In this document: one piece after another, positions 6,438 through 52,336 of the stretch
How the letters are laid out: each line of letters begins with the position of its first letter
How positions within the stretch are numbered: the first letter of the stretch is position 1
Source: Hydrogenovibrio kuenenii DSM 12350
GTDB taxonomy: Bacteria; Pseudomonadota; Gammaproteobacteria; Thiomicrospirales; Thiomicrospiraceae
Direction of reading: 5' to 3'
DNA length: 64,000 nt
Assembly: GCF_000526715.1 (NCBI RefSeq)
Contig: NZ_JAGP01000001.1
Span: forward strand, 1,612,001-1,676,000
Notes under the pieces: model-generated
What the model saw: the letters and a program-made list of their open reading frames with translations, nothing else
What the model was told of the DNA's origin: nothing
The model's database searches: none
Position numbers and translations under genes: made by a program

Positions 6438-8576
6438 TTAACGTTTCTTCCACAAAGTCACTTGGGACAAGGTGTGTTGAAATTTTCGTTGCGTTTCACG
6501 AATTACAAATGGTACATCGAAAGGTTCACGAATCAATTCAAATTCTGCATCAAGCAAAGCTGTGATACCTTCCAGCGTGGTGACGTTTTCACCTGTCTGA
6601 TCATCCTTGTAACCACCCAACCAATTGGCTTTTTCAGTAAAGTCTTCTAGCCAAGTATAAGGCGATGCCAACATTAATAAACCGCCTTCATTTAAGCGGT
6701 GTGACAAATCCTTCAAAAACTTGGCTGGATCATACAAGCGGTCAATTAGGTTGACCGCTACTATCATGTCATAACCAGTAAAAATTGGTTTCAAGTTGCT
6801 GGCATCTTGCTGCAAAAACTCACAACGATGTGCAACATCTGCCAGACCATACTCCGCAAGTGTTCTTTCTTTAAAATCGACAATCTCACCTTCTATTGGC
6901 AAGGTATAGAGAACTGAACCAGAAGTTTTTAACTGATTCGCTACCTGAATAAACCTTGCTGAGAAATCAAGCCCCATGACTTTTTCAAAGCCGAGCGCTA
7001 ACTCGAAGCTTGAACGTCCTACCGAACACCCAACTTCCAATACGGATAAGTCATCTCGTCCGGCAAAGTCCTTATCCGCACGGATGGCTTCTATGGCAAT
7101 ACGCGCATAGTGCTGAGCAAAGTTTTCAACATCGAAATAACTTTCTCCATAATGAAACTCACAGTACTGTGCCACTGCGGCATCGGTTTCATAAGTTGAA
7201 AACTGTGTTTGAACTTCATTTTCTGACTCAATATAACGAAAACCTGCATGCTGGAAAAAATGACGACGAAACGCATAACGTGAATATCCGTTAATTTCAT
7301 TTCCGGTCGAAATCCAACATCCTCCACTAAAAATATTGTGCTGGTTATCAAAAGTCGGCGTGGTGAAATCATCGTATATAGGATGAACTTTAAACCCTTC
7401 AAATGGATAAATCGGGGTTTGTGTCCATTGCCAGACATTACCGATCACATCAAAAAAATCACCGGTTTCATTCCAAGTCACAGGGGTTGAAGAAGCAAAA
7501 CGTTCTAAATTAATATTTGCCTGTCCAGGATTTTTCTCATGATGTTTTAACGCTTGGGTATGGTCTCTTAAACGCAAATACTCATCTTCACTCGGCAAAC
7601 GAATTGGCTTACCTGTTTCGTGGCTTTTCCAACGACAAAATGCACTGGCTTCGAGGTGATTTACTTCTACTGGCCAATCCCAAGGCATCGGTATTTCATC
7701 TGTCATACAGCGCAACCACCAGTCACTTCCCTTTTTCACCCAAAAAGTTGGATGCTTATCTGGTGTAAATTGACGCCAGCGATTGCCTTCTTCATCCCAA
7801 TAGGCTGGGTTTTCATAACCACCCGCTTCAATAAACGCTAAATACTCTTTGTTCGTACACAAAAATGCCGCCGCTTTAAACGCTGCCACTTCTGCTTTGT
7901 GGTAACCATATTCGTTGTCCCAGCCATAAAACTCGGCTGGATCTTGGTGATCTATCACCACTTCACCTGCAGGCACGGAAAAAAGAACATTTTCTGGCGC
8001 ATCATCACTTTCAGTGCAAACAGGAAATAAGGGATGTGGCTTAACTTGATCTATTGGCAGTTGACGAATCAATACAGACGAGGTTTCCAAGTGAATACGT
8101 TCATGTTCGATTCCCATCATGACTGGCCACATTGGGCTTTGCCAATCAATCGGAATATGAAAATCCATCGTATCAATCAGCTGGTTAACCGATTCTCGAA
8201 CCTGGTCTCGATATTCGCGCACTTCTGCAACACTTGGCCAATCATAATGGGCATCATCCAAATCATCCCAAGACATTTCATCCACGCCAATCGCGCACAT
8301 GGATTCGATTTTGGCGTTAATGCGCTGAGGTAGAAGCTTTGCCAAAACCAATTTATTGGTAAAAAAAGTCGCTGTATGACCAAAATAAAAAATCAAAGGA
8401 TGACGCAAAGAGCACGGTCTTAAATAAAACGCATCGTCCGAAACCAACGTTTCAAACAGCGTCTCATACAAACTGTAGGTTTGATTAAAGTAAGCTTTGA
8501 TTTCAGCACGCTTAACTTCTACTTCACCAGTATTTAACACAATGTTATGTGACACGATACTTTCTAACCCTTGCAT
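6438..8576 (-). CDS. ovoA: OvoA: 5-histidylcysteine sulfoxide synthase fused to an N-methyltransferase
   Basis: Bifunctional ovothiol biosynthesis enzyme. The N-terminal DinB-like part carries the non-haem iron ligands in FYFGHTATFF and MGIEHERIHLETSSVLIRQL. A formylglycine-generating-enzyme-like domain follows (IGNVWQWTQTPIYPFEGF, IFSGGCWISTGNEING). The last 220 residues are a SAM methyltransferase with the glycine motif LEVGCSVGRSSFELA. OvoA couples cysteine and histidine with oxygen to form 5-histidylcysteine sulfoxide, and the C-terminal domain methylates the imidazole after OvoB acts. The frame opens at 8594, but the ATG at 8576 has a strong site (AGAGGGAAG), giving 712 residues. It forms an operon with ovoB and lies 42 bp or more after the DUF748 gene. 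Confidence 0.92.
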   Translation of the reverse strand: MQGLESIVSHNIVLNTGEVEVKRAEIKAYFNQTYSLYETLFETLVSDDAFYLRPCSLRHPLIFYFGHTATFFTNKLVLAKLLPQRINAKIESMCAIGVDEMSWDDLDDAHYDWPSVAEVREYRDQVRESVNQLIDTMDFHIPIDWQSPMWPVMMGIEHERIHLETSSVLIRQLPIDQVKPHPLFPVCTESDDAPENVLFSVPAGEVVIDHQDPAEFYGWDNEYGYHKAEVAAFKAAAFLCTNKEYLAFIEAGGYENPAYWDEEGNRWRQFTPDKHPTFWVKKGSDWWLRCMTDEIPMPWDWPVEVNHLEASAFCRWKSHETGKPIRLPSEDEYLRLRDHTQALKHHEKNPGQANINLERFASSTPVTWNETGDFFDVIGNVWQWTQTPIYPFEGFKVHPIYDDFTTPTFDNQHNIFSGGCWISTGNEINGYSRYAFRRHFFQHAGFRYIESENEVQTQFSTYETDAAVAQYCEFHYGESYFDVENFAQHYARIAIEAIRADKDFAGRDDLSVLEVGCSVGRSSFELALGFEKVMGLDFSARFIQVANQLKTSGSVLYTLPIEGEIVDFKERTLAEYGLADVAHRCEFLQQDASNLKPIFTGYDMIVAVNLIDRLYDPAKFLKDLSHRLNEGGLLMLASPYTWLEDFTEKANWLGGYKDDQTGENVTTLEGITALLDAEFELIREPFDVPFVIRETQRKFQHTLSQVTLWKKR

Positions 8577-8636
8577 TACTTCCCTCTTTCTCAATCTACA
8601 TATTTTAAGTAGTCGACACTAAATATATTATCTCAG

Positions 8637-11531
8637 CTACATGGACAAAGACACGCCTGTCACAGTTTCTTGTTGCAGCTCAGGGTGGCAGGTTGTTAAG
8701 CGAATCGGCGCTATCCCACCTTTTTCAACCAACCAATCTTTGACCAATCTTTGTCTGGCTTTTGCCAAATCATATAACCGTTGTTTCAATACAGCTTGTT
8801 GTTCTTCATCTAACGGTGCTGTCTGTTTATCTTCGACTTTTTCTTCAGCCGATTGAATGGCTTTAGTTAGGCTATCTATATCCTGTTGAGTGTAATAACC
8901 ACACACCTTTAAGCTAATCTGTGGTTTTTGTTTTAACAATTTACCCATTTTATCTAGGTACTCTGGCATTCCCGGTGACAATTCATTTTTACCTGAGACA
9001 AAAGCAACCGATTGGAATTGAATTTGATTAATCTTGTCATAGGCATAACTTGTTACCATCGCAATCGCACCATAGGGTTGCAGTGCCAATGTAAGCGCTA
9101 ATTTGGTTCCACCCGTCAATGCATTTTTCAAAGCAGCATTCACAGCACTTGATGCATCAAATCCAGGGTCGGCTAAGTTACCTTCAACAGGTAAGTTGAG
9201 GTCTATGTTGTCATGACTGTCTCTCAGCATATCCAAACCAAATTTCAATGCTGAAGCACTCATCAAACCTGATGCTGTGCTGCTCGTTTCTGTAACAACA
9301 TTTTGTTTTGGTTTTTCTCTGTCATTCGCTTCCATCTCAAAGCCAATCAATACCACGTGGTTTTTAGAGGTAAGCATGTCATCTTTCACTTTGACATCTG
9401 ACGTTAAGTTTAACGAACCACTTTGAATTCGATAGCCCATATCTCGTCTAATAAGCGGTGAAAAAGAATACAAATCCATATCATCGATTTGTGTCTTAGC
9501 TTCTATATTCACCTTAGGAGTGAGTGGTTTCACCTTGCCTTCAACAGACAGTTTAGTGTACTTATCGACGGTGGCCTTCAACTTAAACGGCGTAGAATAT
9601 TTTGGCCGTGCTTCATTAACCTTACCAAACGAAAGCTCTTTGATCAGAATGTTTTTATGCATGCTCGGCTGAGTGGCATGAGTTAATAATTCAATCGTAT
9701 TTTTACCTGTCAGCTGCAACCCTTCAAAATTCCACTTCAAGTCGTTTTTTGTTGCTGAATGCTTTGGCGCTTTTTTACTAGGCTTAGGTTTTGCCCCACT
9801 TGCTTGCGGTTTTGGTAGTGATGCTTTCAAATATTGAACCTGATGTATCTTATGATCTTCATCAAAGTCTAAACTGACATTCATATTATTCAGCGTAACT
9901 TTTCCAACTGACAATTGATTTGCATTTGGTGAGTTAAAACGGCTCAACGACAAAGCATTTATAAACACCAGAGGATGTTTCTCTCGCTTAGTTTTTGCCT
10001 GATTTAATTGCGCTAAGGTGATTTTGTTTAATTGCAGGTTTTTCAAAGAAACTGCTTGTGGGGAATGGAATCTGAGCTGAGTAGCAAGCGTTTTAAAACT
10101 TGCCATTGTCAATTTCTGTTTTGTGTTGGAAAGTATCCAATCAGCCAAATTCAACTGCCCGTTGGTATCAATAACCACAGAGCCTTTACGACTAGCTGCT
10201 TTAGATACTTGTGTGTTACCTTTCCATTGCAACTGCTCACCAGATAAAACCAGTGCTTGTTGCATCAACTTCAAACCACTTAGCTGCAATTGACCGTTTA
10301 CATCAAGCTTGGCAGCCTGTTCATTTGTTGATTGATTCTTCGGTGGCATTAACTGGCTTGCTAACTTGCCCTTCCAAGAAACATTCTTAAGGTTTAATTG
10401 TTGGTCTTTTTGTTTCAGATTGGCATTATGGACAGTCAAAGCATCTTCAGAATCAAAAGTAAGACCTTTGTTTTTCAAGGCCATCTGATGCTGACTGTTC
10501 AGCGTCACTTCCCCTACTTCTAACTGAAGACCTGCGTTATCTAACGCTGCTTGTTCAACGGTTAAATTCACATTATTTTTTAAAACAACATTACTGGAAT
10601 GTATCGTAATATCCGACTGCCCATTTAAGGCAGCATTTTGAACTGAAGCTTGAAGTTTTGCAGTTTGTACAGCACCACCCTCCACAGACAAGTTGCTACT
10701 TAACTGTGCCTGAATATCGCCAAAATGATTAGATGCCGTCACATCCACCGTACCTTCCACTTTCGCTGCAAGCTGCTTTACTTCAGGCGGCAAAAGTTTT
10801 TGATAAGCTTGTAACAACAAATTATCAACGGTAATTTTCCCAATGATTTTTTGCGTATCGGAAAAGGCATTTATCTTTAAATGTCCCTTAAAACCTCCAT
10901 AAACATTCTTTTCACCCACGGCTACTTTAAACGTGATATCTGCTGGATTGTCTGGCGCCCAGTTTTGTAATCGGTTCAATGCCACTTCGTTAAAACGAAT
11001 ATTCTTATCTATATTAGGCGCAATAACATTCACAACCGAATTTCGTAGCACCAAGCTGTTTAACCCCAGCTTCCAGGTTAAGGGGGCAGATTCTGGAGAA
11101 TCAGGCTTCTCTGTTTGATTGAGAGGAATGGATATTCCCGCGACATCAATAAATTCGTTTGGTTTGTAATGGATAAAAAGGTGGGTATTAAGCAAAATGA
11201 CTTTATCAATCACCAAGTGCTTTGCAAATAACGAAGGCCAGTCAAAATCTATAAAAAATTCACCCAGCGTCAGTGGCGCTTTGCCCGCCTTTTTTAAAGT
11301 CATGTTTTCAACTTTAAAACGGCCAGTAAACAAATTGAACGAAACATCCTGAATTTGTACAGATTCTAAGCCTTGCTTCAGTAAGGCTTGCTTCATACCC
11401 AACTTAATACCGTAGGGCAAAGCCGTTAAAAATATCCCAAATAACAATAGAGATATAAGCAGTATTTTCATTTTTAACGAAAAAGATTGCCAATAAGAAT
11501 ACAAGGATACTAAACGCGATTTTAATGCCAC
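8637..11531 (-). CDS. Giant AsmA/DUF748-type envelope protein
   Basis: A 964-residue protein with one N-terminal membrane anchor (about residues 18-40, KMKILLISLLLFGIFLTALP) and a very long periplasmic part of repeating short beta-strands, a layout typical of AsmA/TamB-like bridge proteins that handle lipid transport between membranes. A Lys/Pro-rich stretch with KPKPSKKAPK lies near residue 590. Near the end, FVSGKNELSPGMPEYLDKMGKLL resembles the OmpA-like C-terminus seen in many DUF748 proteins. The lipid-transport role is inferred from the superfamily. The gene lies between alpha-carbonic anhydrase (behind a terminator) and ovoA on the same strand. Confidence 0.7.
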   Translation of the reverse strand: MALKSRLVSLYSYWQSFSLKMKILLISLLLFGIFLTALPYGIKLGMKQALLKQGLESVQIQDVSFNLFTGRFKVENMTLKKAGKAPLTLGEFFIDFDWPSLFAKHLVIDKVILLNTHLFIHYKPNEFIDVAGISIPLNQTEKPDSPESAPLTWKLGLNSLVLRNSVVNVIAPNIDKNIRFNEVALNRLQNWAPDNPADITFKVAVGEKNVYGGFKGHLKINAFSDTQKIIGKITVDNLLLQAYQKLLPPEVKQLAAKVEGTVDVTASNHFGDIQAQLSSNLSVEGGAVQTAKLQASVQNAALNGQSDITIHSSNVVLKNNVNLTVEQAALDNAGLQLEVGEVTLNSQHQMALKNKGLTFDSEDALTVHNANLKQKDQQLNLKNVSWKGKLASQLMPPKNQSTNEQAAKLDVNGQLQLSGLKLMQQALVLSGEQLQWKGNTQVSKAASRKGSVVIDTNGQLNLADWILSNTKQKLTMASFKTLATQLRFHSPQAVSLKNLQLNKITLAQLNQAKTKREKHPLVFINALSLSRFNSPNANQLSVGKVTLNNMNVSLDFDEDHKIHQVQYLKASLPKPQASGAKPKPSKKAPKHSATKNDLKWNFEGLQLTGKNTIELLTHATQPSMHKNILIKELSFGKVNEARPKYSTPFKLKATVDKYTKLSVEGKVKPLTPKVNIEAKTQIDDMDLYSFSPLIRRDMGYRIQSGSLNLTSDVKVKDDMLTSKNHVVLIGFEMEANDREKPKQNVVTETSSTASGLMSASALKFGLDMLRDSHDNIDLNLPVEGNLADPGFDASSAVNAALKNALTGGTKLALTLALQPYGAIAMVTSYAYDKINQIQFQSVAFVSGKNELSPGMPEYLDKMGKLLKQKPQISLKVCGYYTQQDIDSLTKAIQSAEEKVEDKQTAPLDEEQQAVLKQRLYDLAKARQRLVKDWLVEKGGIAPIRLTTCHPELQQETVTGVSLSM

Positions 11532-11688
11532 TGCTACACCTGTCTGTATAAGAGACTCATATTTACAAATTTAACTATCGGGAACTGACTAGAATAAGTC
11601 AAGTGCGCTTAGATGACAATAACATCATCGTTTGATGAACATCGACTAAAAATCGATTTATAAGAAATAAATCTTAGAAAACAAAAAA

Positions 11689-11714
11689 GCGCCTTCATGT
11701 GAAGACGCTTTTTT
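11689..11714 (-). terminator. Rho-independent terminator after alpha-carbonic anhydrase
   Basis: GCGCCTTC/GAAGACGC hairpin with a 4-nt loop and one internal mismatch, flanked by six A's and six T's so it works on either strand. It lies about 25 bp downstream of the carbonic anhydrase stop. Confidence 0.85.
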
Positions 11715-11737
11715 AACTCATTACTGTTTTAGTAAAA

Positions 11738-12718
11738 CTAGTAGAACTGATAATAACGGTTATCTTGGCCGTTTTGCTTAGGATCATTCCAAGACTTGAG
11801 TAATGAACGTGCATTAAGGTTTTGTACAGGACGTGCATTTGAGCCCATAAGTTCATTCATTTTTTCAAGCTGTTCAGCAGAAGCTTCAACTGGTTGCTGG
11901 AATACCATCCAATAAACACCTTCACTACAAGGTGGCGTTGTTAAAGAACCGCTATATTTAAAGAATTTTTTACTCTCTGGAAAAAAGACATTTGGGTTAA
12001 ATGTCACACCACTAAAAATTTCTTGTTTACCTTTTTTCTTAGGTAAATGATCCAAGATGGTCTGCAATGCATCGTTCTCTTTACCTTCTCGGAACAAAAT
12101 ACCAATGACAATATAATGCCCTCTACCATCTCTGTGAACCAAATGTAATTCCATCGGATAATTAAAGCCATTTAACTGATGCTCTGATGGCGTATGAAAA
12201 TGGTATTGCATCAACTCATAACGATGATTATTGATTTTGATATAACTACCAAGCGGCACATTGACTTGTAATGTATGACCGTTATTAATCACTTTGAGGA
12301 CTGTATCACGGTAATGCACATCAAACCCTGGTAAAGAAGTTGTACCGACAGCAGCATCCGTCATTAGATTAACAGGAGATTGATTTTTACCTGTTTTACA
12401 CAATGCATAATCAGGCGATAAATCCCCCCAGTAATCCGGCCCTTCTTTCCCCATATAAGACCAATGAGGATTATGGACAACTTTCTTTTCCGGTTCTTTT
12501 GGTTTTTTAGCCTTTGCAACCGATGTTGAAGTCGTAGTCTGAGACTCCATAGTTGGAGCGCTTGGCGAGCTACTGTTGCCTGCATGGCCTTTTACCTCTG
12601 ACCCCAAATCAAGGAGAGGAGCATTCGAATGCTGAATGCCAGCAGACCATCCTTCTGGCGTTACAAAGAAAATACCAGCTGAAATAAATGCTATAAACAA
12701 CGTTTTTAACGTTTTCAT
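11738..12718 (-). CDS. Alpha-type carbonic anhydrase, exported
   Basis: Interconverts CO2 and bicarbonate. Residues 1-26 form a signal peptide, so the enzyme acts in the periplasm. A low-complexity Ser/Thr/Pro/Lys linker reaches about residue 80, making the protein (326 residues) longer than the usual 240-260. The zinc site is clear: two His in MQYHFHTPSEH and the third in MELHLVHRDG. The substrate-binding motif SLTTPPCSEGVYWMVF is also present. In autotrophic sulfur oxidisers such an enzyme supplies inorganic carbon to the carbon-concentrating system; that role is inferred. A TTGACA hexamer lies on the reverse strand at 12781-12786, without a convincing -10 box. Confidence 0.93.
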   Translation of the reverse strand: MKTLKTLFIAFISAGIFFVTPEGWSAGIQHSNAPLLDLGSEVKGHAGNSSSPSAPTMESQTTTSTSVAKAKKPKEPEKKVVHNPHWSYMGKEGPDYWGDLSPDYALCKTGKNQSPVNLMTDAAVGTTSLPGFDVHYRDTVLKVINNGHTLQVNVPLGSYIKINNHRYELMQYHFHTPSEHQLNGFNYPMELHLVHRDGRGHYIVIGILFREGKENDALQTILDHLPKKKGKQEIFSGVTFNPNVFFPESKKFFKYSGSLTTPPCSEGVYWMVFQQPVEASAEQLEKMNELMGSNARPVQNLNARSLLKSWNDPKQNGQDNRYYQFY

Positions 12719-46082: not shown

Positions 46083-46151
46083 ATGTCTTCTGCAATAAGT
46101 TGTCTGTCGAAGAAGGTTTGCCTTACCCAAGAAACTGGGTGAGGCTTTTTT
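46083..46151 (+). terminator. soxB 3' element and terminator, first copy
   Basis: TGTCTTCTGCAA and then AGTTGTCTGTCGAAGAAGG, with TCTTC/GAAGA able to pair, run into a terminator stem GCCTTACCCA/TGGGTGAGGC (46120-46145) followed by six T's. The unit is repeated almost unchanged at 46579-46648. Confidence 0.85.
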
Positions 46152-46578: not shown

Positions 46579-46648
46579 ATGTCTTCTGCAATGAGTTGTC
46601 TGTCGAAGAAGGTTTACTTCACCCAATAAATTGGGTGAAGCTTTTTTT
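46579..46648 (+). terminator. soxB 3' element and terminator, second copy
   Basis: Near-identical to 46083-46151. The stem is CTTCACCCAA/TTGGGTGAAG (46617-46640) with seven T's. Relative to the first copy, one C-G pair has become T-A, a compensatory change that preserves the stem. Confidence 0.85.
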
Positions 46649-47304: not shown

Positions 47305-47757
47305 ATGACAAGTCCGATGGCACCGATACACTGCCAACAAGCTAAAGACAGCACTTTTTTACTCGGCAACCGGTTTCTAAAACAGCATGGGCAAGCGACA
47401 GCAGGTAGAGCGGATTTGCTTTTCACCATCCACTTCGAGCAAACCTTAATCGGCGCAACTTGGTTGCGCCCACTTGATAACTATTTATGGCTGCGCAGTC
47501 TTTTTATTATTCCAGAATACCGTCACCAAGGCTTTGCATCAGCATTGCTGAAACATATACAACAATCACTTGGACAAACTCAAAAATCGTCAGGCATTGT
47601 CTGCTTGGTAAAACCTGATCTATCAGATTTTTATCAACACAATAGTTACCTTATAGCTGAACTTGCCTCTTTACCCAAAGCAGTTCAAACCACCTTTGAG
47701 CCCTATTTAAGACAACACCCAGCCTGGCAGATTTTTATATACGAAACCAGTTTATAA
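47305..47757 (+). CDS. GNAT family N-acetyltransferase with a repeat copy in its 3' end
   Basis: A 150-residue single GNAT domain. The acetyl-CoA loop is RSLFIIPEYRHQGFASALLKHI (Arg/Gln-x-x-Gly-x-Ala pattern) around residue 70. The substrate is unknown. The frame could also start at the TTG at 47290. The last 20 codons include HPAWQIF, encoded by a copy of the dispersed repeat (47715-47736), so part of the protein end is repeat-derived. It overlaps the convergent phosphatase gene by 6 bp. Confidence 0.78.
   Translation: MTSPMAPIHCQQAKDSTFLLGNRFLKQHGQATAGRADLLFTIHFEQTLIGATWLRPLDNYLWLRSLFIIPEYRHQGFASALLKHIQQSLGQTQKSSGIVCLVKPDLSDFYQHNSYLIAELASLPKAVQTTFEPYLRQHPAWQIFIYETSL
47715..47736 (-). repeat. 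Dispersed repeat inside a coding region
   Basis: Reverse-orientation copy (core CACCCAGCCTGGCAGATTTT) read in frame as His-Pro-Ala-Trp-Gln-Ile-Phe near the end of the GNAT gene. It is the only coding copy in the window. Confidence 0.85.
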
Positions 47758-48240
47758 GTGGTTTGCTCGAATATCATCAAGCAGGCCTTTTGATGCGGCG
47801 GTTACCAAATCAAAGACATGATCAAAGCCAGCGGGCCCGCCATAGTATGGGTCAGGCACTTCTGTCTCATCGTACTCCGGTGCAAAATCAAGGAACATAC
47901 GAATTTTTTCACGATGCTCAGGCAAGGCCAGTTCCATTAAATCCATATAGTTTGAACGATCCATTGCCAAGATATAATCGAACTGAATAATATCCCCTAG
48001 ATCAACCTTCCTAGCGCGTAAATCCGCCATAGGAATCCCACGCGATTCAGCCACTTGCGTAGAGCGAGCATCTGGCTGTTTCCCCACATGATAAGCCGCT
48101 GTTCCAGCAGAATCGATCAAAACAAGATCTGACAACGCAGCTTCATCAACCATACGTCTGAACACCGCATGCGCTGTTGGCGAACGGCAAATATTGCCTA
48201 AGCAAACAAAAAGAACCCTTACCTTTTCTTTATTTTTCAT
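47752..48240 (-). CDS. Low-molecular-weight protein tyrosine phosphatase
   Basis: A 162-residue LMW-PTP. The catalytic loop VCLGNICRSP (Cys-x5-Arg) lies near residue 10 and the general-acid loop is EVPDPYYGGPAGFD. It dephosphorylates phosphotyrosine or arginine-type substrates; the target is not evident. The frame can start at GTG 48258, but ATG 48240 has a GGA 9 bp upstream and fits homologues. The codons before the catalytic loop coincide with a direct repeat whose other copy is 3.3 kb away at 51477-51497, so the present N-terminus and promoter were probably supplied by the inserted island. Confidence 0.88.
   Translation of the reverse strand: MKNKEKVRVLFVCLGNICRSPTAHAVFRRMVDEAALSDLVLIDSAGTAAYHVGKQPDARSTQVAESRGIPMADLRARKVDLGDIIQFDYILAMDRSNYMDLMELALPEHREKIRMFLDFAPEYDETEVPDPYYGGPAGFDHVFDLVTAASKGLLDDIRANHL
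48192..48212 (+). repeat. Left direct repeat (attL-like)
   Basis: TATTGCCTAAGCAAACAAAA plus one A, within the LMW-PTP gene. On the reverse strand it encodes the residues around LFVCLGN. Beyond the exact 21 bp, AAC and TACCTT are also shared with the right copy. Confidence 0.8.
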
Positions 48241-48530
48241 ATACTTACATCCAATCACAAACTAGATTTATGTGAAAAAACTGAGTTTTTTATTAAAAAA
48301 CTCAATAACTTAAAAAATGTTTTGGGGAAAACTAATCTCAACTACCTTAAAAAGTAAACTCTAAAAATATACTCTGATAGTGATTCAATAATCCGCCTCT
48401 AAATTTAGAGCATATTAAATTCAATAAACTTTATTGTGATATATGGTAGAGTTTTTAGTATTTTTTACCACTATTTGACAGATTATGTCTTTATTTCAGA
48501 ATTTCAAATATTATTGAATGGGGATTATTC
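48241..48530. other. AT-rich intergenic region at the left of the island
   Basis: This stretch lies between the phosphatase start and the GNAT-ASCH gene. It contains a perfect TGAGTTTTTT/AAAAAACTCA dyad at 48282-48304 and a TTGACA hexamer at 48475-48480 that could belong to the promoter of the downstream gene. No -10 box is convincing. No other gene is seen. Confidence 0.5.
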
Positions 48531-49607
48531 ATGGCTAACTTTGAATACAAACAACTATCGGAAATTAATTTAGAACAAGAGTTTTTTGATTCATTAAAAG
48601 AAGCTTATCCTGAATTTCCGATATGGTATCAAAGAAAGGCCTCAGAAGGCGAATGTGCATATGTTTTATTTAATAAACATCAGCAATTAGATGCTTTCTT
48701 ATATTTAAAATGTGAAGGACTAGATGAAAATTACTCTGATATAGACCCCCCATTTGAACGGGGAATCAGAGTTAAAGTTGGGACTTTAAAAGCTATTTCT
48801 AGGGGAACCCGACTTGGAGAAAGGATAATTAAAAAAATCATTGATTATGCTTCTGAATCTGAAATCTCTGAAGTATATGTAACCGTTTTTGATGAACATG
48901 ATCACTTAATCGAATTACTGAAAAAATTTGGCTTCATGCATTGGGGGAAAAAGACGAGCACAAGAGAAAATGTTTTAGTCAAAAGACTCGACTTTCACTT
49001 TGATGACCAAAACGGCAACTTTGATATTTATAAAAGTTATCCCCTCGTTAATACATCAAATGTAAATTATTGGGTTTTGGGAATTTATCCGGAATTCCAT
49101 ACTAGAATGTTTCCTGATTCCATCTTAACCAATGAGTCATATGAGCTAATTCAGGATGTATCTGAAACCAATACCATTTCTAAAATTTATCTCACAAAAC
49201 TAGAATGTATATCTCAGATGAAAAGAGGTGACATAATTTTAATTTATAGAACTGGAGATGGCCTATCTGCTGCGAGATATAGAGCGGTAGTTACATCCAT
49301 TTGCATTGTTGACGAGATAAAAAGTATTTTCGATTTTCAACACGAACTCGACTTTATGAACTACTGTGAAAAAGGAAGCGTATTTACAACAGAAGAATTA
49401 TCCTATTTTTACCGTTCTAAAAAATACCCAAAGATAATAAAGTTAACCTATAACATTGCCTTACGTCATCGCGTGACAAATGGTGACCTGATTGACCATG
49501 TTCACTTGCATCCTCGCTATTGGGGATGCTTCCCTCTTACTAAAGATCAATTTGGACACATTTTTAAAATGGGCCAAGCGAACAGCAACTTATTAGTTCA
49601 TGTTTGA
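48531..49607 (+). CDS. GNAT acetyltransferase fused to an ASCH/PUA-like domain
   Basis: A 358-residue two-domain protein. Residues 1-165 look like a GNAT domain: VKVGTLKAISRGTRLGERIIKKIIDYA has the acetyl-CoA loop, followed by YVTVFDEHDHLIELLKKFGF. Residues 180-358 look like an ASCH/PUA fold, with VLGIYPEFHTRMFPDS resembling the start of the nearby ASCH protein (LLSIKPEFAEKILSG) and GDIILIYRT as the central strand. ASCH domains bind RNA or nucleic-acid-derived ligands, so acetylation of a translation component or nucleotide is a guess. It is followed 12 bp later by the membrane-anchored gene. Confidence 0.65.
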   Translation: MANFEYKQLSEINLEQEFFDSLKEAYPEFPIWYQRKASEGECAYVLFNKHQQLDAFLYLKCEGLDENYSDIDPPFERGIRVKVGTLKAISRGTRLGERIIKKIIDYASESEISEVYVTVFDEHDHLIELLKKFGFMHWGKKTSTRENVLVKRLDFHFDDQNGNFDIYKSYPLVNTSNVNYWVLGIYPEFHTRMFPDSILTNESYELIQDVSETNTISKIYLTKLECISQMKRGDIILIYRTGDGLSAARYRAVVTSICIVDEIKSIFDFQHELDFMNYCEKGSVFTTEELSYFYRSKKYPKIIKLTYNIALRHRVTNGDLIDHVHLHPRYWGCFPLTKDQFGHIFKMGQANSNLLVHV

Positions 49608-49619
49608 GGGATAAAAATA

Positions 49620-50717
49620 ATGAATACATCAAGCAAAAACTCACTAGCTGTATGGATTGACGGGACACAAGAATATTACACTTACTCTCTGGATGTAAAC
49701 CTAAAAATCACAGGGCCTACAACGGAACGCTTTATAGAAATTGGATTAACAGTTCATGAAGTAGAAGGTGCAAAAAAAATAAACTTATTTTGCCCATTTC
49801 AAATTGATAGTTCATGCATAGAAAATTTAGGAGAAACGTTAACTAAGAAACCTGACACTCTTGGAGCTATGTTCAACTCCACAGTGTCTGTCAGCTCAGA
49901 TCCTACGAATGCATCATCAGAAGTCACATTGAACGGTACAAAAAAACTACATATATGTACATTAGGTTCAGATATTTTTGATGTCACACCTTGTGAAAAC
50001 GATAGTTCATTAATATCTATTAATTTCGATAACTGTATTTCCAAAAAAACTAATAACGGCAGTTATTACTTTCGTTTTAGATTAAATAAACTCCAAGGTC
50101 TACATGAAGAAGAGTCCGGCACTCCCTATTGGTTTGCAGGAAAAAAAGAAGAATATTCTTACTTAGATTTTAGAGTCAATATGCCTAGAAGCCTACCAAA
50201 CAGTATTGCCGTTAAAGCTTTCAAAGATAAGCTATTACGGATTCATGTTTTTCTGCTGGTTGATACAAGTCAAAAAATCGTATTTGGTACAAAATCACCT
50301 AAGGACACTAGGTTATTAGAAAAAGATGACTGGAAAGGGTATTTCCCTAAAAAAAATAAGGCTTTTTCTTTTCTTCATACCGAGGAAGATAAGGCTAAAA
50401 TCGTCGCCTACCATTGGAAGAAAGAGTACTCATATGAAAACGATGCTAATAATGACTATGATTTATTTGTAAAACTAATAACAGAAAAAAGTAATAAAAA
50501 AATAATTCTGACTGCAGCTATTTTCACTCTAATATTTGGTTCTGCTTCCGGTGTCCTCGGGAATTATGCATTTAAAGCATTAGAGGACACCACTTATCCT
50601 GATGCATTATCTAAGCCTAACCAGGTTAAAAAAGCAGAGAATCCTGCATATGACAAAAAGACTCAAATAAAGCTATCTACTCAGCCAAATAGCAAAAAGA
50701 CTGTGGTGGGACCTTAA
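49620..50717 (+). CDS. Unknown protein with a C-terminal membrane anchor
   Basis: A 365-residue protein I do not recognise. About 300 soluble, strand-rich residues are followed by one hydrophobic helix near 304-326 (IILTAAIFTLIFGSASGVLG) and a short polar tail of about 45 residues. There is no signal peptide, so the large domain is probably cytoplasmic. The gene follows the GNAT-ASCH gene by 12 bp in the same operon. Its last 41 bp overlap the convergent ASCH gene. Function is unknown. Confidence 0.6.
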   Translation: MNTSSKNSLAVWIDGTQEYYTYSLDVNLKITGPTTERFIEIGLTVHEVEGAKKINLFCPFQIDSSCIENLGETLTKKPDTLGAMFNSTVSVSSDPTNASSEVTLNGTKKLHICTLGSDIFDVTPCENDSSLISINFDNCISKKTNNGSYYFRFRLNKLQGLHEEESGTPYWFAGKKEEYSYLDFRVNMPRSLPNSIAVKAFKDKLLRIHVFLLVDTSQKIVFGTKSPKDTRLLEKDDWKGYFPKKNKAFSFLHTEEDKAKIVAYHWKKEYSYENDANNDYDLFVKLITEKSNKKIILTAAIFTLIFGSASGVLGNYAFKALEDTTYPDALSKPNQVKKAENPAYDKKTQIKLSTQPNSKKTVVGP

Positions 50718-51051
50718 TTCCAAGCTTTTTTAAGTCAAAAGGTTTTTCATATTCTTGTGGTGAAGATATTTTCAATGCAAAGGCTGTTTCTCTGCCCAAA
50801 AAATATTGATCAAAATAATCTTTCTCAATCCCTGAATATTTAAATGTTTTGCACCACAAATCCTCCGGTGGCATTGATAGTATAGCTTGGACATCAAATT
50901 CACCAACGACCTTCTGGACTGGACTCGAAGCATAAATCACTACAGAACGTACATTCTGATTTTTAAACACTACTTTTCTAAATTCAAAGCGCTTCTGCCC
51001 TGATAAAATCTTTTCCGCGAACTCAGGTTTGATTGACAGTAATACTCTCAC
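50677..51051 (-). CDS. Stand-alone ASCH domain protein
   Basis: A 124-residue ASCH protein: VLLSIKPEFAEKILSGQKRFEFRK at the start, then VVIYASSPVQKVVGEFDVQAIL, the usual order of the family. ASCH domains are related to PUA domains and are thought to bind RNA; the EcYqfB type hydrolyses N4-acetylcytidine, so deacetylation is conceivable. It faces the two forward genes of the island and overlaps the second by 41 bp. Confidence 0.75.
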   Translation of the reverse strand: MRVLLSIKPEFAEKILSGQKRFEFRKVVFKNQNVRSVVIYASSPVQKVVGEFDVQAILSMPPEDLWCKTFKYSGIEKDYFDQYFLGRETAFALKISSPQEYEKPFDLKKLGIKVPPQSFCYLAE

Positions 51052-51476
51052 TCACAATGCCCTTTTATTTCTAATCGTTATGCCAAATTTAAAAATGTAT
51101 TTTGCACTATATAAACATCAATTTGGATATTTTTTCTGTGGTAAGGCACCTGTTTTTTAACAAAACTTATAGCTACTAAAGACAAGTTTGTTAGTAACTT
51201 TGATAATTTTAAGATAGGTAATACTTCTGATATCTGCGCTAAAATTCTTCGCAAAAACGTCGGATATTTGACCAATTAATGCAAGATTAATTTGTTAAAA
51301 CATGGCACTCATAAAAGCTAACAAAATTGTTAGCTCTCTAGCATTTTGGGAGATAATTACCCATCCAGAGGCAAAACTTGCCTACAACTGAAAGTCATAC
51401 TTCCAGTTTGTTTTAGGGATAATTTGAAAAATGATATTAATCTCTTTAAAATCAATGTATTACAATAAACCCCTCT
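51052..51476. other. AT-rich non-coding end of the island with three tandem dyads
   Basis: No credible gene is present. Three dyads lie within 93 bp: AGCTAACAA/TTGTTAGCT (51316-51335), AGGCAA/TTGCCT (51369-51383) and AACTGAAAGT/ACTTCCAGTT (51386-51408, one mismatch). The group could be a structured recombination site, an operator cluster or a folded RNA. Confidence 0.5.
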
Positions 51477-51519
51477 TATTGCCTAAGCAAACAAAAATAA
51501 CAGATACCTTATGACTCAT
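51460..51519 (-). pseudogene. Stub of the original LMW-PTP gene start
   Basis: A reverse-strand frame MSHKVSVIFVCLGNKRGLL-stop. HKVSVIFVCLGN matches EKVRVLFVCLGN of the intact phosphatase, but the frame leaves homology right after the repeat, before the catalytic Arg. This is what remains if the island entered the gene at the catalytic-loop codons. Confidence 0.65.
51477..51497 (+). repeat. Right direct repeat (attR-like)
   Basis: Exact 21-bp copy of 48192-48212, within the phosphatase stub, 135 bp before the pseudouridine synthase start. Confidence 0.8.
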
Positions 51520-51631: not shown

Positions 51632-52336
51632 ATGAACAAATCAGCCAGTAAAAACACCAAAACCGGTGGCAGAACCTCTGCCAAACCACCTATTTTACTG
51701 ATTCCCTTTGCGGAAGATTGGCTGGTGTATGAAGATGCTGATGTAATTGTCGTTAACAAACCATCCGGGCTATTATCTGTACCAGGACGAGATGCCGATC
51801 CTTTAGCAAGCTTAATAGGGCAGGTTCAAACCCGCACGCCAGAAGCATTGATTGTTCATCGGTTGGACATGGATACCTCTGGCCTAATGGTGCTAGCCAA
51901 AAATGCGGAGGCGCATCGAAACCTAAGCCGTCAATTTGAAATGCGTGAAACGGCCAAACAATATCAAGCCATCTGCTTTGGGTGCCCTTCTCAATCTGGT
52001 GGTCAAGTCTGCCAACCAATGCGGTGTGATTGGGAAAACCGCCCGCTACAAATGATAGATTTTAAATATGGTAAGTTCGCACAAACCCTGTGGCAGCAGG
52101 AACAACAACTTGAAAACAGTTTCAAAGTACTGCTCACCCCTATTACAGGCCGTTCTCACCAACTTCGCCTTCATATGAAACAACTCGGGCATCCTATGCT
52201 AGGCGACAACTTATATGCCGACCAACCTAATCAACAAGCATTTAAACGACTGCATTTACACGCGTTTCAATTAGGCTTTAAACACCCAACAACTCAAAAA
52301 CACATGGCTTTCAATCAAATAGCAGATTTCTGGTAG
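51632..52336 (+). CDS. RluA family pseudouridine synthase
   Basis: A 234-residue RNA modification enzyme. VVNKPSGLLSVPGRD and the catalytic Asp segment VHRLDMDTSGLMVLAK are followed by PITGRSHQLRLHMKQLGHPMLGD, all diagnostic of the RluA family. The short length without an S4 domain fits RluA itself (23S rRNA U746 and tRNA U32), but specificity is not certain. Four copies of an AAACTCA-type 7-8-bp repeat lie just upstream (about 51570-51598). Before island insertion this gene was probably divergent from the phosphatase gene. Confidence 0.87.
   Translation: MNKSASKNTKTGGRTSAKPPILLIPFAEDWLVYEDADVIVVNKPSGLLSVPGRDADPLASLIGQVQTRTPEALIVHRLDMDTSGLMVLAKNAEAHRNLSRQFEMRETAKQYQAICFGCPSQSGGQVCQPMRCDWENRPLQMIDFKYGKFAQTLWQQEQQLENSFKVLLTPITGRSHQLRLHMKQLGHPMLGDNLYADQPNQQAFKRLHLHAFQLGFKHPTTQKHMAFNQIADFW

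What the first reader, a model, noticed from the sequence alone, without database searches (positions are those of the whole stretch)
48192..51519. Integrase-less island inserted at the catalytic-loop codons of an LMW tyrosine phosphatase gene
An exact 21-bp direct repeat (48192-48212 and 51477-51497), plus neighbouring AAC and TACCTT matches, brackets 3.3 kb of AT-rich DNA. The left copy lies in the intact phosphatase gene; the right copy lies in a 19-codon stub MSHKVSVIFVCLGNKRGLL with its own ATG. The two N-termini (EKVRVLFVCLGN and HKVSVIFVCLGN) differ in codons outside the repeat, as expected if the element brought its own replacement gene start. Insertion into conserved protein-coding sequence with restoration of the gene is a known behaviour of tyrosine-integrase islands, but no integrase is present here.
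Basis: partly seen in the sequence, partly recalled or inferred. Interest (0 to 1): 0.75.

Follow-up and report, generated by a model that had tools for sequence, protein, structure and literature searches.

The report
Integrase-less defence islands in phosphatase gene
A 3.3-kb piece of foreign DNA carrying likely anti-phage genes has inserted precisely into the active-site codons of a bacterial phosphatase gene and given that gene a new start, and its ends resemble the recognition sites of a phage integrase that the island itself lacks.

Summary
The window is Hydrogenovibrio. In 53 of 61 genomes of its order the phosphatase (LMW-PTP) gene lies beside a divergent RluA gene; the window and Hydrogenovibrio JE_KL2 have an island between them, and six genomes could not be judged. 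G010, close to JE_KL2, has the empty site, and its gene start equals JE_KL2's stub over 100 bp. JE_KL2's island has other cargo (C5 methyltransferase, GHKL ATPase) but the same replacement start (MKNKEK[V/I]RV); its crossover falls inside 8 bp, TGTCTTGG (Cys-Leu-Gly codons). The window cargo matches candidate defence system PDC-M11. No integrase was found in either island. Integrases at this site exist elsewhere: a P4-like lineage (six elements) and a lambda-like lineage (three, one a 39-kb Hydrogenovibrio prophage). Beside the core, the window shares a 12-nt run and JE_KL2 a 16-nt run with that prophage at equal distances (1 and 0 of 2000 control pairs). Best reading: attP-bounded defence cassettes mobilised in trans by a lambda-type phage integrase; decayed prophages remain possible. 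My searches found no report of LMW-PTP as an integration site. New variant of a known kind.

The parts
47752..48258 (-). LMW protein tyrosine phosphatase gene (likely ATG 48240); its first codons MKNKEKVRVLF are island-borne
   Evidence: PF01451 1.7e-40; mosaic test against JE_KL2 and G010
48192..48212 (-). PTP-side copy of the core repeat, within codons for LFVCLGN
   Evidence: direct repeat
48321..48329 (-). putative arm-type motif TTCCCCAAA, 125 bp from the PTP-side core; the only exact YTCCCCAAA in the 64-kb window
   Evidence: JE_KL2 has it at -126; motif chosen after seeing the sequences
48531..49607 (+). cargo: 358-aa GNAT/EVE-like protein, PDC-M11A
   Evidence: PADLOC 2.3e-123; phrog_6345 4.3e-127; Pfam matches below cut-off
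49620..50717 (+). cargo: 365-aa protein of unknown family
   Evidence: ORF; no PADLOC or PHROG match, Pfam only a sub-threshold SPP1_Dit E=0.15; 1 of 369 class genomes at E<=1e-10, its own
50677..51051 (-). cargo: 124-aa ASCH-domain protein, PDC-M11B
   Evidence: PADLOC 6.7e-49; PF04266 2.7e-05
51370..51382 (-). GGCAAGTTTTGCC inverted repeat, +107 from the stub-side core (JE_KL2: +106; prophage: +263)
51445..51456 (-). ATTGATTTTAAA, +33 from the core as in JE_KL2 and the Hydrogenovibrio prophage
51477..51497 (-). RluA-side copy of the core repeat
   Evidence: direct repeat
51460..51519 (-). 19-codon stub MSHKVSVIFVCLGNKRGLL, the original start of the PTP gene
   Evidence: same start as the empty-site gene of G010
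51632..52336 (+). RluA-family pseudouridine synthase, ancestral divergent neighbour of PTP
   Evidence: PF00849; beside PTP in 53 of 61 genomes

Best explanation
The 3.3-kb island is a site-specifically integrated mobile element bounded by hybrid attachment sites, with a lambda-type tyrosine recombinase as the likely actor. attB is the stretch of the LMW-PTP gene that encodes the catalytic loop (V-C-L-G-N). Integration cuts the gene after about 14 codons; the island end supplies a new start codon, new first codons and presumably a new promoter, so a full-length PTP frame is kept and the old start is left as a stub. The island keeps attP-like end sequences but no integrase gene. It was most likely integrated in trans by an integrase of the kind encoded by a lambda-like Hydrogenovibrio prophage that uses the same site. 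It is thus a helper-dependent cassette whose payload is a probable anti-phage system. Shown by sequence: precise insertion, empty site, swapped start, a second island with other cargo, integrases at this site elsewhere, end sequences shared with the prophage. Inferred: that these ends are arm-type sites, action in trans, present mobility, anti-phage function.
For: PTP and RluA are divergent, 4-378 bp between tblastn match ends, in 53 of 61 genomes; G000 and G001 (= JE_KL2) have an island. Mosaic test: JE_KL2 stub against empty G010 100 of 100 bp; 45 nt before the PTP core JE_KL2-window 84%, JE_KL2-G010 42%. JE_KL2 crossover within TGTCTTGG. The islands' cargo genes differ and only their ends and flanks align by blastn at E<0.01. 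A Hydrogenovibrio prophage contig has RluA, stub and a lambda-like integrase in a row. Longest same-offset run on the stub side, outside the core: JE_KL2-prophage 16 nt, window-prophage 12 nt; in 2000 control pairs of AT-rich DNA none exceeded 13 and 1 reached 12; window-JE_KL2 PTP side 10 nt (8 of 2000 control pairs reach it). YTCCCCAAA: prophage +58 and +80, JE_KL2 +80 and -126, window -125; background 9 in 517 kb. Nine other elements have an integrase within about 200 bp of PTP core codons.
Against: The prophage-type integrase was not found (E<=1e-15) in any of 62 genomes of the order, both island hosts included, so no resident helper is seen; the tool notes that this set holds no positive control. 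The window lacks an exact YTCCCCAAA on the stub side (only ATCCCTAAAAC, nearer the core than in JE_KL2). Motifs were chosen after seeing the sequences; with one mismatch allowed (TTCCCCAAAA) each island also has one match away from its ends and the window has 5 in all. Window and JE_KL2 agree on the stub side only over 9 nt (18 of 2000 control pairs). The far end of the prophage is not in its contig. Excision was not observed. In the passages I saw, neither PMC9745183 (abstract) nor PMC2669165 shows an integrase moving an integrase-less island in trans.
Confidence: 0.6

Rival explanations
1. Decayed prophages: each island is what is left after a prophage at this site lost its integrase and all phage genes by deletion, keeping a defence cargo and both att ends.
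For: A prophage with shared end sequences sits at this site in the genus. Defence genes as prophage cargo are common (recalled). PDC-M11A and M11B have PHROG relatives.
Against: Two islands with different cargo would both have lost everything but the ends. They share a replacement start over 17 of 17 nt. No phage structural family matched in either island; the only match to a replication family is JE_KL2's methyltransferase to a primase family at 4.7e-05. The GGCAA[A/G][C/T]TTTGCC repeat is at +106/+107 in the islands; the prophage has it too, but at +263, so it tells little.
Confidence: 0.27
2. Spread by ordinary homologous recombination: the island was inserted once, then the PTP-RluA stretch with changing cargo was exchanged between species by transformation or similar.
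For: The flanking genes are conserved across the order; many defence hotspots are thought to exchange cargo this way (recalled).
Against: JE_KL2's stub flank is identical to G010 over 100 bp and 82% to the window, and the switch happens inside the core, not in the flanks. The core codons differ between the islands (TGCTTAGG, TGTCTTGG).
Confidence: 0.08
3. Partial tandem duplication of the PTP gene start followed by decay, with no mobile element.
For: Two copies of the gene start are present.
Against: The two starts differ outside the core; the stub has the ancestral start and the intact gene a foreign one. AT-rich DNA with its own genes lies between. The same event with other DNA in JE_KL2, and an empty site in G010.
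Confidence: 0.01

Closest known systems
dusA-associated islands and prophages (PMC4482086; passages and section 18 read)
   Same: Integration at the 5' end of a conserved protein-coding gene; the element replaces the 5' end with its own sequence and may restore the enzyme.
   Different: There a dusA-associated integrase adjoins the gene; here the target is the catalytic loop of LMW-PTP and the window island has no integrase.
CIMEs, cis-mobilizable elements (search listing only; their features are recalled)
   Same: att-bounded, no recombination or transfer genes, needs a partner.
   Different: CIMEs are linked to ICEs and move by accretion in tandem; here the shared ends are those of a lambda-like prophage, and no tandem was seen.
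Phage satellites such as PICIs (PMC10111431, search listing with start of abstract; features recalled)
   Same: Small, thought to depend on phages, cargo that may interfere with phages.
   Different: PICIs carry their own integrase and regulators; none was found in the islands.
Lambda-like prophage of Hydrogenovibrio crunogenus XCL-2 (38.7-kbp exclusive region in PMC6501319, passages read; its identity with IMG/VR contig 637000325 is recalled)
   Same: Same site, same stub start, shared end sequences.
   Different: 39 kb with integrase and phage genes; the islands have neither.
PDC-M11 candidate defence system (PADLOC)
   Same: Both named proteins M11A and M11B are present.
   Different: In two plasmids the M11A relative overlaps an ASCH-domain gene on the same strand (not scored as M11B there); here a third gene lies between and M11B is on the other strand.

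Membership tests
Site-specific integrative element (tyrosine recombinase type) | Core repeat at both ends, inside a conserved gene, with an empty site in relatives | tested here: met
Site-specific integrative element (tyrosine recombinase type) | Own integrase gene | tested here: not met
Site-specific integrative element (tyrosine recombinase type) | Arm-type sites around the core | tested here: inconclusive
   shared runs and motifs at equal offsets; in the window exact only on the PTP side; binding not tested
dusA-type 5'-replacing islands | Replacement start keeps the target gene open | tested here: met
   (open frame; function not assayed)
dusA-type 5'-replacing islands | Target gene is dusA or dusB | tested here: not met
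   target is LMW-PTP
CIME | Flanked by attL and attR, no recombination or transfer genes | tested here: met
CIME | Mobilised by accretion with an ICE at the same site | not testable with these tools
   no tandem seen; needs experiment
PICI-type satellite | Own integrase, regulators and interference genes | tested here: not met
   no integrase and no such families among ORFs scanned:
Prophage remnant | Recognisable phage structural or replication genes left | tested here: not met
   unknown-function, acetyltransferase and methyltransferase families; one weak primase-family match (4.7e-05) of JE_KL2's methyltransferase
PDC-M11 defence system | M11A and M11B present | tested here: met
PDC-M11 defence system | Anti-phage activity | not testable with these tools
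   bench assay needed

The most novel reading that the evidence does not exclude
A lineage of integrase-less, attP-bounded cassettes uses temperate phages' own lambda-type integrase to spread anti-phage systems among Hydrogenovibrio. By filling attB in the phosphatase gene they may also deny the helper phage its lysogeny site, and they take over the start and promoter of a phosphatase gene each time they move. The catalytic-loop codons of LMW-PTP would be a general attB used independently by two integrase lineages.
Probability: 0.33. Interest if true: 0.8.

Novelty: new variant of a known kind. Interest (0 to 1): 0.62.

Why it matters
It adds an integration target, the active-site codons of LMW-PTP, hit by two integrase lineages in several gammaproteobacterial families and in viral contigs. 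It gives a clean case of probable defence cargo at an attachment site without its own integrase, with a named candidate helper and predicted sites, so mobilisation in trans is directly testable. It also shows a gene start being swapped by a mobile element while the reading frame is kept.

Tried and rejected
Integrases of the genus (29 proteins) as queries on the PTP loci then held: the hits in L158, L160, L181 and L182 lie kilobases from PTP with RluA still beside it. The four recombinase matches of the window's genome: two are Xer-like by their conservation in the genus (not tested further); the other two lie about 145-154 kb from the island and match neither PTP lineage at E<=1e-6. Resolvases: none in G000, one in G001, not at the island. 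The loose stub pattern matched 35 places in 33 of 369 class genomes, no more than its reversed control (about 39 genomes by my count); on inspection of all 35, two were true stubs, G000 and G289, and one (G130) was a PTP-like protein. The strict pattern over 287 phylum genomes found only G000. The P4-like integrase alignment over 398 phylum genomes found none at E<=1e-45, with no known positive in that set; a first viral scan with one integrase found none. Viral contigs L232, L235 and L236 match in one identical sequence, antisense to a phage gene in the copy read; dropped as chance. L234's integrase is 4.4 kb from its core; only possible. L249's integrase is cut by the contig end. Close relatives of PDC-M11A in viral contigs: none. 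Promoter and terminator scan: no excess over shuffles. Mageeney 2020 and Scott 2006 are not held. Paper searches for LMW-PTP as an integration site listed nothing of that kind; in the last, 15 of 291 papers were shown. On re-checking the GGCAA...TTGCC repeat, which I had thought absent from the prophage, is there at +263; I lowered the best explanation from 0.62 to 0.60 and the novel case from 0.35 to 0.33, and raised decay from 0.25 to 0.27.
Full report
What is there. The window carries an exact 21-bp direct repeat, 48192-48212 and 51477-51497, extended to 34 nt at 88%. The left copy is in an intact LMW-PTP gene, the right copy in a 19-codon stub. Between them lie 3.3 kb at 32.8% GC against 41.6% for the window. 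The cargo is a 358-aa GNAT/EVE-like protein, a 365-aa protein of no known family and a 124-aa ASCH protein. PADLOC names the first and third PDC-M11A (2.3e-123) and PDC-M11B (6.7e-49), a candidate defence pair. No recombinase match lies in the island in a six-frame search, and no phage structural family among the ORFs scanned. Repeat length alone is not decisive: 1 of 100 random 200-bp pieces of the window has a match of 22.

Empty site and second island. The closest named PTP match is Hydrogenovibrio sp. JE_KL2 (L045), whose contig has the same length, 267,557 bases, as contig C9 of G001; I take them as the same genome. PTP is found in 61 of 62 genomes of the order, one match each. In 53 of the 61, RluA is divergent, with 4-378 bp between the ends of the tblastn matches (G070's RluA match is weak, 37%); in G000 (window) and G001 an island lies between; in six (G011, G014, G017, G020, G024, G028) RluA is not on the stretch examined, four of which have under 1.5 kb upstream. 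All nine empty genomes of the genus start M-x-x-x-V-S-V-[I/L]-F (eight of nine MSH), both occupied ones MKNKEK[V/I]RVLF. JE_KL2 has its own stub, MSHKVSVIFVCLGNRGR, then 3.8 kb with a C5 methyltransferase (PF00145, 1.5e-67), a GHKL ATPase (PF13589, 4.4e-16) and a 132-aa protein without a match.

Mosaic test. G010 is close to JE_KL2 (88% over 15.6 kb; the window is 75-76% from both) and has the empty site. Upstream of the core on the stub side JE_KL2 and G010 are identical over 100 bp. In the 45 nt before the core of the intact gene JE_KL2 matches the window (84%) and not G010 (42%). After the core JE_KL2 is again closer to G010 (87.6%) than to the window (80.9%). JE_KL2's stub follows G010 up to TGTCTTGG and its intact gene follows G010 from there on, so the crossover lies in those 8 bp, if the core has not mutated since. 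G010 being empty and its relative occupied, there was either a separate insertion in JE_KL2 or a precise excision in G010; both point to site-specific recombination.

Integrases at this site. A loose stub pattern over 369 class genomes, mostly chance, led to G289: stub, 9.5 kb with a tyrosine integrase (PF00589, PF13356, PF22022), a capsid protein and a tape-measure protein, then PTP. That integrase has three matches at E<=1e-40 in 369 class genomes (G289, G277, G419; three families), and all three lie beside PTP. The contigs of G277 and G419 end before a stub could be seen. The alignment of the three found three viral contigs, all with the PTP core: L230 and L237 (whole contig of L231) have PTP at one end and a stub at the other; L229 has one joined core and no PTP core, as expected of a free or excised form. 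A stricter pattern over viral contigs gave ten: L229, L230 and L237 again, three dropped as chance, L234 with an integrase 4.4 kb off, and L233, L239 and L238 with a lambda-like integrase next to the core. That makes nine elements with an integrase within about 200 bp of the core. The two lineages are only distantly related (best match between them 27% over 99 residues).

The Hydrogenovibrio prophage. L238 is the start of a 38,979-bp viral contig with RluA, stub MSHKVSVIFVCLGNKHVITQLIDFK and integrase P0002 in a row. P0002 is 36.6% identical to lambda-type integrases. That its IMG number is H. crunogenus XCL-2 is recalled; PMC6501319 (passages read) reports a prophage as the largest XCL-2-exclusive region, 38.7 kbp, absent from SP-41. 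The motif YTCCCCAAA lies at +58 and +80 in the prophage, +80 and -126 in the JE_KL2 island, -125 in the window island, and nowhere in the 3.5-kb G010 locus. It occurs once in the 64-kb window and 9 times in 517 kb of 39 related loci. With one mismatch (TTCCCCAAAA) each island has one further match away from its ends and the window 5 in all. ATT[G/T]ATTTTAAA is at +33 in all three. A test without chosen motifs: the longest same-offset run on the stub side is 16 nt for JE_KL2-prophage, 12 nt for window-prophage and 9 nt for window-JE_KL2; on the PTP side window-JE_KL2 share 10 nt. Of 2000 control pairs of AT-rich 200-nt pieces 1 reached 12 (it had 13, the maximum) and 18 reached 9; of 2000 pairs of 250-nt pieces 8 reached 10, one of them two overlapping pieces. 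The window's stub-side copy of the YTCCCCAAA motif is degenerate, and the prophage's PTP side is not in its contig. I read the shared sequences as arm-type sites of a lambda-type integrase.

Mechanism. Shown: precise insertion, swap of the gene start, same site with two cargos, integrases of two lineages at this site elsewhere. Inferred: an infecting or co-resident phage supplied the integrase. P0002 relatives were not found (E<=1e-15) in any of 62 order genomes, including both island hosts, so no resident helper is known. Decay of two prophages to their ends and cargo is kept at 0.27; the shared replacement start (17 of 17 nt) argues for a common lineage of short elements, while the GGCAA[A/G][C/T]TTTGCC repeat does not, being in the prophage as well at +263.

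Cargo. PDC-M11A relatives occur in 33 of 72,556 plasmid records; in the two opened, the gene overlaps an ASCH-domain gene. No close relative was found in viral contigs. The 365-aa protein was found in 1 of 369 class genomes, its own. Anti-phage function is a prediction.

Known and new. Replacement of a gene's 5' end by an island is known for dusA (PMC4482086). Att-bounded elements without integrase are known as CIMEs (listing; details recalled). New as far as searches show: LMW-PTP as target, and probable defence cassettes there sharing ends with a lambda-type prophage. The library holds only open-licence papers and the lists were capped, so this is a limited statement.

Noticed in passing
window 46083-46151 and 46579-46647: A 69-nt direct repeat, 90% identical, 496 bp apart, ending in a run of T.
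   Followed up: no
L185 about 7240-12070 (JE_KL2, G001 C11): Three long co-directional ORFs in a row (418, 513, 695 aa), the first two matching tyrosine recombinases; resembles known recombinase trios (recalled).
   Followed up: no
L217 9974-19055, L230, L237: Small 8.6-10.2 kb elements at the PTP site with a P4-like integrase; G289's has capsid and tape-measure genes, so they may be phage satellites that make their own capsid.
   Followed up: partly
L184 14709-16068 and 5706-6816 (window's own genome): Two further tyrosine-recombinase matches (ORFs of 453 and 370 aa) about 145-154 kb from the island, the first near an ORF with an HNH-like motif read by eye; no match to the PTP lineages.
   Followed up: partly
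PTP core of related loci (window 48186-48198): The bases after the crossover in attB, GGCAATATTTGCC, form an inverted repeat with a 3-bp spacer and are identical in 42 of 61 PTP genes of the order.
   Followed up: partly
L252 7772-8872 (Vibrio tubiashii plasmid pFP31): A tyrosine-type recombinase gene lies about 2.7 kb from the PDC-M11A relative there.
   Followed up: no
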